The notes below the pieces were generated by a model. It did not search any database and was not told the origin of the DNA. It worked only from the letters and a program-made list of their open reading frames with translations. The position numbers were made by a program, and so were the translations under genes. From positions 1-6,745 of the forward strand of contig CALGZD010000332.1 of assembly GCA_937934635.1 (NCBI GenBank): a DNA stretch of 6,745 bases. The letters are read 5' to 3'. Below, piece after piece: positions 1-4,437 of the stretch. This stretch comes from an uncultured Deinococcales bacterium (lineage in GTDB: Bacteria > Deinococcota > Deinococci > Deinococcales > Trueperaceae). Within the stretch, counting starts at the first letter, position 1. Each line of letters begins with the position of its first letter.

Positions 1-55
1 ATACACCAAAATGTATTATCTACTAAGATGTTTTTGTAGCGAAGCGAAAAAAACT

Positions 56-140
56 CTAAAGGTGTGTCCGTATCGGATATTCAAGAATTTTTGTGCTATG
101 CCTAAATGTTTTCATCGGTAATATTCGGACACACCCCTAA
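56..140. repeat. Short inverted-repeat element, possible MITE relic
   Basis: GGTGTGTCCG at 61-70 is the exact reverse complement of CGGACACACC at 126-135. The outermost pair (A60 and C136) does not match. Directly outside lies CTAA on both sides (56-59 and 137-140), which reads as a 4-bp target duplication around a 77-bp element. Four-base CTAA-type duplications are known for the IS5 group, but four bases can match by chance in AT-rich DNA. There is no coding capacity for a transposase. The ends resemble those of the element at 2557-2701. A plain RNA hairpin with a 55-base loop is the alternative reading. Confidence 0.5.
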
Positions 141-376: not shown

Positions 377-1486
377 ATGGCAGAAAAACTACTTGAGGTT
401 AAAGGTCTAAAAACCTATTTTGATACTGACGAAGGTACAGTAAAAGCTGTCGATGGGGTTAGTTTTCACATTGACAAAGGGGAAACACTCGCAGTTGTTG
501 GTGAGTCTGGTTCTGGTAAGTCAGTAACAAGTCTGTCGATTATGCGTCTTATTCCTATGCCACCAGGTCGCTTTGCTGGTGGTGAAATCAACTTTGAAGG
601 TCAAAATATCTTACAGCTCAATGAGCGTGGTATGCGCCAGATTCGTGGTAACGATATTTCCATGATTTTCCAAGAGCCTATGACCAGCTTGAACCCTGTA
701 TATACAGTGGGTGATCAAATTGCTGAGGCAATTGTGCTTCACCAAGGCAAGACAAAGTCGCAAGCTATGAAGCTAGCTGCTGAAATGCTAGACCTTGTAG
801 GTATTCCTGAGCCAGGAAAGCGTGTTAAAAACTATCCACACCAAATGTCAGGTGGTATGCGTCAGCGTGTCATGATTGCTATGGCGCTTTCTTGTAGTCC
901 TAAGCTACTCATAGCTGACGAGCCAACAACAGCACTTGACGTAACCATTCAAGCTCAGATTCTTGACCTCATGCGTAAGCTGCAAAAAGAGATTGGTATG
1001 TCTATTCTATTCATTACTCACGATTTAGGTGTGGTAGCAGAAATTGCTGACCGAGTTGTGGTGATGTACTCAGGACGTGCTGTGGAAGAAGCAGAAGTCG
1101 AAACGATTTATGCGAAACCACGTCACCCATATACAATGGGTCTACTAAATTCGATTCCAAGGGTAGATAAAGCAGCAGAACACCAAGAGCGTCTGGAAGC
1201 TATTCCAGGTAATGTACCAAACCCACTTTATTTGCCTGATGGTTGTGCGTTTAATCCACGCTGTGGTTATGTCAAAGATATATGCAAAGAAGAAATTCCA
1301 ACATTAGCCGATTCTGGTGGTGGTCATATGGTGCGTTGTGCAAGATGGCAATCTGTTGCTGAAGAACGTGCTAGTAACAGAACTAACCTAACCCTTAGTG
1401 ATATAAATTCAGGTAATATAAATCTTGATGATTTAACGCAAGATGAAATAAATCGACTAACTCTAAACAAAGAGGCATTAGTATGA
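377..1486 (+). CDS. oppD: Oligopeptide/dipeptide ABC importer ATP-binding subunit (OppD/DppD type)
   Basis: This 369-residue protein is one of two cytoplasmic ATPases that would power a peptide importer of the Opp/Dpp (or nickel/peptide) class. All ABC motifs are present: Walker A GESGSGKS at residues 42-49, Q-loop Gln99 in [10 protein letters not shown], signature SGGMRQR at 158-164, Walker B LLIADE at 177-182 with catalytic Glu182, D-loop ALD, and switch His215 in ITHD. The C-terminal oligopeptide domain starts near HPYT (251-254) and carries four cysteines, C291, C297, C304 and C322, at the positions expected for the iron-sulfur-type cluster described in some OppD/DppD proteins. About 45 residues follow the last cysteine, an Asn/Asp/Leu-rich hydrophilic tail longer than in typical family members (usually about 325-340 residues). 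The gene overlaps oppF by four bases. Substrate cannot be told from sequence, so Opp versus Dpp naming is by convention only. Confidence 0.95.
1471..1475 (+). promoter_or_regulatory. Ribosome binding site of oppF inside oppD
   Basis: AGAGG lies 7 bases before the ATG at 1483, inside the end of oppD. Together with the ATGA overlap (start 1483, oppD stop 1484-1486) it fixes the oppF start and suggests translational coupling, which would keep the two ATPases near 1:1. Confidence 0.7.
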
Positions 1487-2529
1487 GTGCAGTAGCAGAA
1501 TCTCAAAACACAGCTTCAAACACAGCTTCAAACACAGCTTCAAATACAACCAAAACAGCAAAAGGCAACGAATACCTTTTGGAAGTAAAAAATCTTAAGA
1601 AGTATTTTCCAATTCGTGGCGGTATCCTATCGCAGGTTGTTGGCAATGTAAAAGCAGTAGAAGATTTGAACTTTGGAATTCGCCCAGGTGAAGTAGTAGG
1701 TCTTGTGGGTGAGTCTGGTTCAGGTAAGACAACTGCAGGGCGTGCAATTTTGCGTTTGATTGAACCAACCGCTGGCGAAGTTATTTTTGATGGTACAGAC
1801 TTAACCAAAGTCAATAAGCGCACTATGCGTGAGTATCGTAAAGAAATGCAAATTATCTTTCAAGATCCATTTGCGAGTCTTAACCCACGTATGACTGTTG
1901 GTGACATCATTGGTGAGGCATTAGAAATTCACAAGCTTGCTAAAGGCAAAGCCAAAGATGAAAAAGTAGCGGATTTGCTTGAAAAAGTAGGTCTTTCTAG
2001 CGCTCACATGCGCCGCTACCCACACGAATTTTCTGGTGGTCAGCGTCAACGTATTGGTATTGCAAGAGCGCTTGCTGTAGATCCACAGTTTATTGTGGCT
2101 GATGAGCCAGTGTCTGCGCTTGATGTTTCGATTCAGGCACAGGTTGTGAACCTGCTTCAAGATTTGAAAGAAGAGCTTGGTCTTACGCTCCTCTTCATTG
2201 CACACGATTTAGCAGTTGTTGAGTACATTAGTGACGTCGTTATCGTTATGTACTTAGGGCGAATCATGGAAATTGCACCAGCTCGTGAGCTGTATAGCAA
2301 TCCTGTTCACCCGTATACAGAGTCGCTACTTTCAGCGATTCCGATTCCAGATCCAACTTTGAAGCGTGAGCGTATTTTGCTAGAAGGTGACATCCCTTCA
2401 CCAATCAACCCGCCAAGTGGCTGTGTATTCCGTACACGCTGTCCAATCGCAACAAAAGAATGCGCTGAGGTTGTGCCTACCCTCGAAGAAGTTAGCCCTG
2501 ACCACTTTAAGGCGTGTATACATCGATAA
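1483..2529 (+). CDS. oppF: Oligopeptide/dipeptide ABC importer ATP-binding subunit (OppF/DppF type)
   Basis: This 348-residue protein is the partner ATPase of OppD; the two are expected to form a heterodimer under a pair of membrane permeases. Motifs: Walker A GESGSGKT at 76-83, Q-loop Gln127 in [10 protein letters not shown], signature FSGGQRQR at 183-190, Walker B FIVADE at 203-208, D-loop ALD, and switch His241 in IAHD. The run [20 protein letters not shown] is typical of OppF. The C-terminal domain has C314, C320, C327 and C345, with the same spacing as in the upstream OppD (C-x5-C-x6-C-x17-C). The ABC domain begins at about residue 31 ([12 protein letters not shown]). The preceding 30 residues are a low-complexity leader with three NTAS repeats that is not part of the family fold. 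No permease or solute-binding gene follows; the downstream region is non-coding and then unrelated. Confidence 0.95.
1507..1542 (+). repeat. Three tandem 12-bp repeats in the oppF start region
   Basis: The unit AACACAGCTTCA occurs three times without a mismatch (1507-1518, 1519-1530, 1531-1542), with a decayed fourth copy after it. It encodes NTAS repeated in frame at OppF residues 9-20. Because the unit is a multiple of three, gain or loss of copies would change length without breaking the frame. Confidence 0.95.
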
Positions 2530-2547: not shown

Positions 2548-2710
2548 AAAGCTTCGGGGTGCGTCCCGCTATAGGTTGGATGTATAGTTCACATAGTTAT
2601 AATGTGTTAAGTACTTAAGGGACGCACCTTGGAAGTTTTTCAAAAAGCAAAAAACTTCTATTTGCTTTGAAACTATTTCCAACCTCAAATGGGACGCACC
2701 CAAAGCTTCG
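2548..2710. mobile_element. MITE-like non-autonomous element with 9-bp flanking repeats
   Basis: GGGTGCGTCCC (2557-2567) and GGGACGCACCC (2691-2701) are perfect 11-bp terminal inverted repeats. The match resumes inside as AGGTTGGA (2573-2580) against TCCAACCT (2678-2685), so 20 of the outer 24 positions pair. Directly outside both ends stands the 9-bp direct repeat AAAGCTTCG (2548-2556 and 2702-2710), as left by transposition. The 145-bp element has no coding capacity. Inside are a third copy of the end, GGGACGCACC (2619-2628), preceded by the palindrome TTAAGTACTTAA (2607-2618), and a hairpin GAAGTTTTT/AAAAACTTC (2632-2640 and 2650-2658). It sits just after oppF and may also act as a folded transcript end. 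The parent transposase family cannot be named from this window; 9-bp duplications occur in several IS families. Confidence 0.75.
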
Positions 2711-2718
2711 TAATTTTG

Positions 2719-2750
2719 ACAGAAGGCTGGTGTTATACTAGCCTTCTGTT
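2719..2750 (+). terminator. Perfect hairpin, possible terminator
   Basis: ACAGAAGGCT (2719-2728) pairs exactly with AGCCTTCTGT (2740-2749), and two more pairs (one G-U) narrow the loop to TGTTATA. T-rich sequence (TTGTTTG) follows, but without a real T run. It could end the oppDF transcript. It also encloses a −10-like box of the next gene, so the terminator call is only one of two readings. Confidence 0.4.
2731..2739 (+). promoter_or_regulatory. Extended −10 promoter for the membrane gene pair
   Basis: TGTTATACT fits an extended −10 (TG-N-TATACT), with TATACT at 2734-2739, which puts the transcript start near 2746 and leaves a leader of about 24 bases that includes the ribosome site AGGTGA (2758-2763). 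A good TTGACA lies at 2716-2721 but only 12 bases upstream, too close for a normal −35, so the extended −10 reading is preferred. The box sits in the loop of the hairpin 2719-2750. Confidence 0.45.
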
Positions 2751-2769: not shown

Positions 2770-3219
2770 ATGATGATGCTGTGGGATGAAATACAAGAAT
2801 TTTTGCAAGGCTTATTCAATATGAAGAAGTCAAAACTGGTGTGGACTGTTTGGATAGTTGTGATTAATTTGCTTAGTTTGGCATTTTTGCCAAGACCTGA
2901 AGCCATAGCTGTATTCATGGGTTTTATGCTCAGTAGTGCCACTATGTTTTGGTTAGCAGAAATCAAAGGTTTTGTTCGCTTGCTTGGTGCAGCCTATTTT
3001 TGGTGGATTCCAGTATTGATTTATCTTGCGCTACGTATGGAGACTATAGATTTTTTATCTACTTTTGGAATATGGCTGGTATTGCTTTATCTTACGAATA
3101 TCATTGCTTTAGTATTTGATATGGTAGATGTGTATAGATACTTTCGTGGTGAAGATGATGAAATGATTGTCCACCCGCTTGTGGATATGGAGTTAAGCGA
3201 AAACCATCCTGAAAGATAG
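2770..3219 (+). CDS. Small four-helix membrane protein, function unknown
   Basis: I do not recognise the family. The 149-residue product has about four hydrophobic segments: roughly residues 23-40, 45-63, 71-88 and 96-116. The first 22 residues look amphipathic, and the C-terminal 23 or so are hydrophilic and acidic (GEDDE, ELSENHPER). Charged residues sit at the helix borders, including E64, K66 and R70 between helices 2 and 3, and D117, D120, R123 and R126 after helix 4. The FWW cluster at 77-79 probably lies at a membrane surface. There is no signal peptide cleavage pattern and no catalytic motif I can name. The start is supported by AGGTGA; an alternative is Met18 (MKKSK). The next gene begins one base after its stop, so the two are probably translated from one mRNA. 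Confidence 0.8.
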   Translation: MMMLWDEIQEFLQGLFNMKKSKLVWTVWIVVINLLSLAFLPRPEAIAVFMGFMLSSATMFWLAEIKGFVRLLGAAYFWWIPVLIYLALRMETIDFLSTFGIWLVLLYLTNIIALVFDMVDVYRYFRGEDDEMIVHPLVDMELSENHPER

Positions 3220-4119: not shown

Positions 4120-4149
4120 GCTAATGCTATTTATGCTAATGCTATTTAT
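4120..4149 (+). repeat. 15-bp tandem duplication
   Basis: GCTAATGCTATTTAT occurs twice, back to back and identical (4120-4134 and 4135-4149). Its position upstream of the minus-strand gene is outside the core promoter, and no role is evident. Confidence 0.95.
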
Positions 4150-4291: not shown

Positions 4292-4430
4292 ACTTTACTT
4301 TACTTTACTTTACTTTACATTGAATTGGATTGAATTGAATTGGATTGAATTGGATTGAATTGAATTGAATTGAATTGAAGTGGATTGAAGTGGATTGAAG
4401 TGGATTTAAGCAGAATTGGTATAAGTGGAT
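4292..4430 (+). repeat. Pentanucleotide tandem array next to the deacetylase start
   Basis: Five ACTTT units (4292-4316) are followed, after ACAT, by 17 pentamers of the TGAAT/TGGAT/TGAAG type (4321-4405). Within these, TGAAGTGGAT forms a 10-bp unit repeated three times (4376-4405). The phase continues in decayed form (TTAAG, CAGAA, TTGGT, ATAAG, TGGAT) to 4430, seven bases before the ATG at 4438. The array is outside the coding sequence. Such arrays change copy number by slipped-strand synthesis, so this locus is likely to vary between strains. Confidence 0.95.
4395..4425 (+). promoter_or_regulatory. Possible promoter within the pentamer array
   Basis: TATAAG (4420-4425) is the best −10 candidate, with TTGAAG (4395-4400) 19 bases upstream as a −35 supplied by a repeat unit. 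Transcription would start about six bases before the ATG at 4438. Because nearly every unit gives a TTGAAT or TTGGAT, many alternative −35-like sites exist. There is no Shine-Dalgarno, in keeping with a very short leader. Confidence 0.35.
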
Positions 4431-4437
4431 AGTTGTA

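What the first reader, a model, noticed from the sequence alone, without database searches (positions are those of the whole stretch)
2548..2710. MITE-like element with perfect ends and a perfect 9-bp target duplication
The 145-bp unit begins GGGTGCGTCCC and ends GGGACGCACCC, and AAAGCTTCG abuts both outer ends. Terminal repeats plus flanking direct repeats, with no ORF, is the signature of a non-autonomous transposed element. Six of the nine flank bases (AAGCTT) are palindromic, so I checked the alternative that the flanks extend the inverted repeat: as a direct repeat they match 9 of 9, as an inverted repeat they do not align. The perfect match suggests recent insertion.
Basis: seen in the sequence. 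Interest (0 to 1): 0.7.

Follow-up and report, generated by a model that had tools for sequence, protein, structure and literature searches.

The report
Small mobile DNA repeat, transposase missing
The 145-base sequence is a real small jumping element with no genes of its own that inserted behind a transporter gene in an uncultured Deinococcus-related bacterium; dozens of relatives sit in a related genome that lacks it at this spot, so it is a new but ordinary kind of bacterial mini-transposon.

Summary
Ends, 9-bp flanks and coordinates are exact. The host is an uncultured Deinococcota. In an unnamed related genome (G080; OppF 95% identical) the element matches about 40 places at 73-88% DNA identity. 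Of 50 near-complete copies profiled, 24 carry perfect 9-bp target duplications, all different, against 3 of 2450 swapped flank pairs, all three from copies sharing a flank. The orthologous oppF-downstream site of G080 is empty: 91 bp between genes, versus 86 bp in the window without element and one duplication, and the same terminator hairpin. So this is a MITE insertion, most likely made after the two lineages split. No parent transposase was found: ISKra4, ISLre2, IS256 and DDE_Tnp_1 searches of G080 gave none with these ends. A covariance model matched 1 of 111 Deinococcota genomes (capped scoring). New family of a known kind; modest interest.

The parts
2548..2556 (+). left copy of the 9-bp target-site duplication AAAGCTTCG
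   Evidence: 9-bp duplications at G080 copies
2557..2580 (+). left terminal inverted repeat, outer 11 nt GGGTGCGTCCC, 24-nt arm
   Evidence: conserved in alignment A2
2619..2629 (-). internal third copy of the end (GGGACGCACCT on +), same orientation as the right end
   Evidence: present, with some substitutions, in the 31 aligned elements and in family B
2632..2658 (+). hairpin GAAGTTTTT..AAAAAACTTC beside the internal copy
   Evidence: folded alone with its surroundings it is not unusual (z -1.35)
2678..2701 (-). right terminal inverted repeat, ends GGGACGCACCC
2702..2710 (+). right copy of the 9-bp target-site duplication AAAGCTTCG
2719..2749 (+). terminator-like hairpin downstream of oppF, outside the element, also present at the empty site in G080
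   Evidence: inverted repeat I20
1483..2529 (+). oppF-like ABC transporter ATPase upstream of the insertion
2770..3219 (+). 149-aa gene of unknown function downstream; 148-aa counterpart at the same place in G080
1..136 (-). edge-cut copy of sister MITE family B: end GGGTGTGTCCG (136-126), internal CGGACACACCT (70-60), then a T-rich/A-rich stretch; other end lies outside the window

Best explanation
Positions 2557-2701 are a MITE: a 145-bp non-autonomous DNA transposon. A DDE-type transposase supplied in trans recognises the GGGTGYGTCC ends and inserts the element through a 9-bp staggered cut whose repair makes the flanking 9-bp duplication. Here it inserted between the oppF stop codon and the oppF terminator, most likely after this lineage split from G080. 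Shown: dispersed copies, 9-bp duplications, an empty orthologous site, conserved ends. Inferred: the transposase type, action in trans, and that the internal third end copy comes from, or serves as, an extra transposase-binding site.
For: Copies: 57 matches in G080, 40 of 102 first-look candidates scored; 149 sites within one mismatch of the end against 3 for the reversed control. Duplications: a search that kept only 8 or 9 matches of 9 lists 31 elements, 27 perfect; at fixed boundaries 24 of 50 near-complete copies are perfect, all 24 different, while swapped pairs give 3 of 2450, all from copies that share a flank. Empty site: orthologous oppF and 148/149-aa genes with no element between them and the same terminator hairpin. 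Sites: at 30 of 33 insertions examined, window included, no ORF of 90 aa or more spans the site. Chance: 0 of 1000 resampled windows have such an inverted pair with abutting 9-mers.
Against: No transposase with these ends was found: ISKra4 and ISLre2 models 0 matches in G080, IS256 one match below cut-off, six DDE_Tnp_1 genes none flanked by the ends within the 1.5 kb or less of flank held; no element longer than 282 bp (limit 4.5 kb) with such ends and a duplication in 818 kb of fetched G080 loci, overlaps included. 21 of 50 near-complete copies match at 7 or fewer of 9 flank bases; some share a flank with another copy (chimeric assembly or recombination), others look decayed. The profile behind the 50 was built from the window element plus 28 G080 elements that had been picked for having duplications, so the fraction is not an unbiased estimate. 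The window's own genome is not held, so copy number there is unknown.
Confidence: 0.95

Rival explanations
1. A REP/BIME-like palindromic repeat moved by a RAYT (Y1) transposase through single-stranded DNA.
For: Palindromic GC-rich ends, high copy number, mostly between genes, strong folding, three copies of the palindrome arm.
Against: Perfect 9-bp duplications at 24 of 50 copies; IS200/IS605-type Y1 transposition makes none (recalled). I did not search G080 for a Y1 transposase.
Confidence: 0.02
2. A conserved RNA or transcription element (terminator, 3' UTR stabiliser) of oppF whose ends look like a transposon by chance.
For: Lies in the oppF 3' region; RNA of the whole element folds strongly on both strands (z -7.8 and -8.1); some stem pairs change on both sides.
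Against: Absent from the orthologous site of G080 while copies sit at dozens of other sites; no Rfam match in the window. It may still affect the oppF transcript as a side effect.
Confidence: 0.02
3. The element is a true MITE and its internal end copy works as an alternative end, so that the left half can move alone.
For: L182 holds a 74-bp element from the left end to the internal copy, flanks matching 7 of 9; 7 or better occurs in 12 of 2450 swapped pairs. Families A, A' and B keep the internal copy.
Against: Only one such derivative seen; its duplication is imperfect and I chose the boundary that fits; an internal deletion inside a full copy would look the same.
Confidence: 0.25

Closest known systems
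MITEAba12 of Acinetobacter (PMC6382973; abstract and passages seen)
   Same: 113-bp element without known coding sequence, imperfect 16-bp terminal repeats, 9-bp target duplications (36 of 90 copies), identity to IS elements confined to the ends.
   Different: Its proposed parent ISAba12 is resident there, none is found here; different phylum; no three-end layout in the passages I saw. I did not align the two sequences.
QMITE2 of Coxiella burnetii (figure legend in review PMC10969869)
   Same: Same size class: direct repeats 7-9 bp, terminal repeats 23-29 bp, core 113-145 bp, strong predicted fold.
   Different: Only the legend was seen; no sequence comparison was made.
Nezha MITE of cyanobacteria (seen only as a reference title; details recalled)
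   Same: Small MITE with terminal repeats and duplications of similar length, from memory.
   Different: Not compared here; I did not try to open the paper.
REP/BIME elements with RAYT transposases (recalled)
   Same: Palindromic intergenic repeats in high copy number.
   Different: No target duplications expected there; 9-bp duplications found here.

Membership tests
Bacterial MITE | Short element (about 50-600 bp) without a gene | tested here: met
   145 bp; no ORF of 60 aa or more contained, the one overlapping frame has no Pfam match; 30 of the 31 G080 elements are 141-149 bp
Bacterial MITE | AT-rich | tested here: inconclusive
   element 40.0% GC, the same as the window (40.4%); the core 2581-2677 is 29.9% GC
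Bacterial MITE | Terminal inverted repeats | tested here: met
   24-nt arms at 83%, outer 11 nt perfect; conserved among 31 aligned elements
Bacterial MITE | Target-site duplication of fixed length, different at each site | tested here: met
   9 bp; 24 of 50 near-complete copies perfect and all different, 21 of 50 match 7 or fewer of 9
Bacterial MITE | Multiple dispersed copies | tested here: met
   about 40 places in G080; not testable in the window's own genome
Bacterial MITE | Filled versus empty orthologous site | tested here: met
Bacterial MITE | Autonomous parent IS with the same ends and duplication length | tested here: inconclusive
   none found in G080 for ISKra4, ISLre2, IS256, DDE_Tnp_1; other families not searched; the smallest contig fetched is 2500 bp, so short IS-only contigs may be missing from the bin
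ISKra4-derived MITE | ISKra4 transposase in the genome | tested here: inconclusive
   0 matches in the fragmented genome G080 at E 10; the window's own genome is not held
REP/BIME (RAYT) | No target-site duplication (recalled) | tested here: not met
   9-bp duplications

The most novel reading that the evidence does not exclude
Three diverged MITE families (A, A', B) share one layout: left end, inverted internal copy of the end followed by a T-rich/A-rich stem, right end. The internal module stays recognisable (GGACRCACCTT..TTTTT..AAAAA) where most of the remaining sequence has diverged, and a 74-bp element ends at the internal copy. So the module may be under selection: a second transposase site that gives alternative ends, or a structured RNA, making a nested MITE that can shed its right half.
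Probability: 0.3. Interest if true: 0.45.

Novelty: new member of a known kind. Interest (0 to 1): 0.3.

Why it matters
It documents a group of MITE families in uncultured Deinococcota, with an empty-site test of insertion. Such repeats shape intergenic regions and can break or chimerise metagenome assemblies. If the internal end copy works, the family would be a simple natural case for testing how extra transposase-binding sites let short derivatives arise and spread.

Tried and rejected
Own-genome search: no genome held. First genome-contig scan with the YdjC protein: 34 pattern matches, none a relative; a MutS alignment worked. Viral-contig pattern scans: 46 loci, not examined one by one; 15 loci, whose listed end-like 11-mers include no oppositely oriented pair within 300 bp; 0. 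Plasmid blastn: three hits at E 5 and none. Phylum pattern GGGTGCGTCCCN{0,30}GGTTGG: one match in each of 6 of 111 genomes, only the G080 one recognised as this element. Transposase hunt in G080: ISKra4, ISLre2, IS256, DDE_Tnp_1; IS1, IS66, IS3, IS630 and others were not searched. Two loci with a lone end, L173 and L176: no transposase-like ORF among those listed, judged by eye. Papers: the end sequence as text gave 36 papers, 20 listed, none about insertion sequences by title; MITE, Deinococcus and three more terms together gave 0; two of Truepera, insertion sequence, miniature inverted gave 206 papers, none of the 10 listed holding Truepera; two searches were used for comparison. These searches do not prove the family unpublished. 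The AAGCTT palindrome as part of the stem: it can pair in the fold, but most duplications at other copies are not palindromic, so I take it as a coincidence of this target.

Full report
What is there. The inverted repeat is the longest listed in the window. Identical 9-mers abutting such a pair occur in 0 of 1000 Markov-1 resampled windows, although an inverted 11-mer pair alone occurs in 497 of 1000. The element sits between the oppF stop (2529) and a terminator-like hairpin (2719-2749), ahead of a 149-aa gene (2770). A third copy of the end lies inside at 2619-2629 in the orientation of the right end, next to a hairpin at 2632-2658.

Host. The named relatives of OppF near the top of the list are Deinococcales, Trueperaceae and Deinococcota metagenome bins, and MutS is up to 69% identical, best segment, to Trueperaceae bins. 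No genome is held for the window.

Copies. The element with its surroundings matched G080 in 57 places; 40 of 102 first-look candidates were scored. The 40 best rows reach E 2.7e-16 or better at 73-88% identity, several of them covering only the right half; the other 17 are short matches of ends. The end within one mismatch occurs 149 times in G080 against 3 for the reversed control. Thirty copies were printed with flanks, and the window element and 30 G080 elements were aligned. A profile from 29 elements (the window's and 28 of G080 picked for having duplications), searched on the G080 loci fetched by then, gave 116 deduplicated hits. I dropped 66 of them from the count below: antisense matches through the palindromic ends, partial or weak ones. 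That leaves 50 near-complete sense copies.

Target duplications. At fixed boundaries 24 of 50 copies match 9 of 9, 5 match 8, 5 match 7 and 16 match 6 or fewer; allowing a shift of one base gives 25 and 6 for 9 and 8. Swapped left/right pairs reach 9 of 9 in 3 of 2450 and 8 in none; all three come from copies that share a flank (L116/L111, L147/L126, L172/L147), which points to recombination or misassembly. A separate search that kept only matches of 8 or 9 lists 31 elements, 27 perfect. The duplicated nonamers are AT-rich (31% GC over 25 perfect ones, the window's included) with weak base preferences.

Empty site. G080 contig C190 holds oppD, oppF and the counterpart of the 149-aa gene in the same order. 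Between the oppF and 148-aa ORFs lie 91 bp (ORF ends). The window has 240 bp there, which is 86 bp without the element and one duplication. The terminator hairpin is shared and the element is absent. G080 has AAAGCTAAG near the expected place, but the alignment of this short stretch is loose and did not pair it with AAAGCTTCG, so I do not claim the exact target base. With oppD/oppF DNA at 84-85% identity, the insertion postdates the split unless G080 lost the element precisely.

Sister families. Two elements of G080 (L183, L178; family A') have the same layout with a different middle and perfect duplications. Family B is represented by L240 (153 bp, perfect duplication AGTGTGGAT) and L239 (282 bp, with another dispersed repeat inside, duplication 8 of 9). 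Window 1-136, minus strand, is a further copy of B cut by the window edge: 85% identical to L239 over 61 nt, with end GGGTGTGTCCG at 136-126 and internal copy at 70-60; its outer flank and other end cannot be checked. In these sequences GGACRCACCTT followed by a T-rich and then an A-rich stretch is kept, though single copies of family A carry substitutions in it.

Structure. RNAalifold pairs the stem; 7 of 27 consensus pairs have at least one sequence changed on both sides, four of them only in L183/L178, and the covariation term is small, -0.68 kcal/mol. Against a conserved RNA: the stretch around the window hairpin folded alone gives z -1.35 with 23 of 200 shuffles as good, and the family-B module of L240 gives z -0.30 and a different fold. 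The strong fold of the whole element (z -7.8 and -8.1 for the two strands) is largely what long inverted ends give.

Derivatives. L182 holds a 74-bp element from the left end to the internal copy, and L164 a 97-bp one; both have flanks matching 7 of 9. 7 of 9 or better is seen in 12 of 2450 swapped pairs. This suggests, but does not prove, that the internal copy can serve as an end; I chose the boundary that fits.

Distribution. A covariance model of 31 elements matched at E 0.001 in 1 of 111 Deinococcota genomes, G080. In the genomes listed only 28 candidates each were scored, with stricter filters, so weak relatives could be missed, and G080's 28 matches are a floor. No Rfam family matches anywhere in the window at E 1.

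Parent. No transposase with these ends was found in G080: ISKra4 0, ISLre2 0, IS256 one match below cut-off, DDE_Tnp_1 six without the ends. In 818 kb of fetched G080 loci, overlaps included, no element longer than 282 bp (limit 4.5 kb) has such ends with a duplication. G080 is fragmented and the smallest contig fetched is 2500 bp, so a multicopy IS may simply not be in the bin. The transposase type therefore rests on duplication length and end structure, which is inference.

Effect on the host. Around 33 insertions examined, window included, 27 have an ORF of 90 aa or more on both sides in the sequence held; at 30 of 33 no such ORF spans the site, and at 3 (L112, L129, L154) one of unknown standing does. 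This is a rough ORF scan: several neighbouring ORFs end within a few bases of the element (for example L110, L113, L134), and a shortened gene end is not excluded. In the window the element would be transcribed as part of the oppF 3' region; any effect on the transcript is untested.

Verdict. A real, ordinary MITE insertion, of a family I did not find described in the searches made, with an unusual but unproven three-end layout.

Noticed in passing
window 1-136 (-): Edge-cut copy of sister MITE family B (GGGTGTGTCCG end, internal CGGACACACCT); the other end and flank are outside the window.
   Followed up: partly
L239 1324-1605 and matches in L135, L303, L273, L182, L231, L263, L176: A further dispersed repeat of about 130 bp, lying inside the family-B element of L239 and found elsewhere in G080 (77-96% identity; 74% over a shorter stretch in L176).
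   Followed up: no
window 4294-4433: Long array of five-base units (TTTAC, then ATTGA/ATTGG/AGTGG) upstream of the YdjC-like gene (D1).
   Followed up: no
window 1502-1545: 12-bp in-frame repeat adding NTAS units to the OppF N-terminus; the OppF of G080 lacks it.
   Followed up: no
window 4120-4149: Perfect 15-bp tandem duplication GCTAATGCTATTTAT (D11).
   Followed up: no
L111/L116, L147/L126, L172/L147: MITE copies in G080 that share one flank but not the other, suggesting chimeric assembly or recombination at the repeats.
   Followed up: partly
L224 2108-2566 (G080): A 152-aa protein gene (looks like an acetyltransferase, judged by eye) sits between the 148-aa and 90-aa genes in G080 and is absent from the window order.
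   Followed up: no
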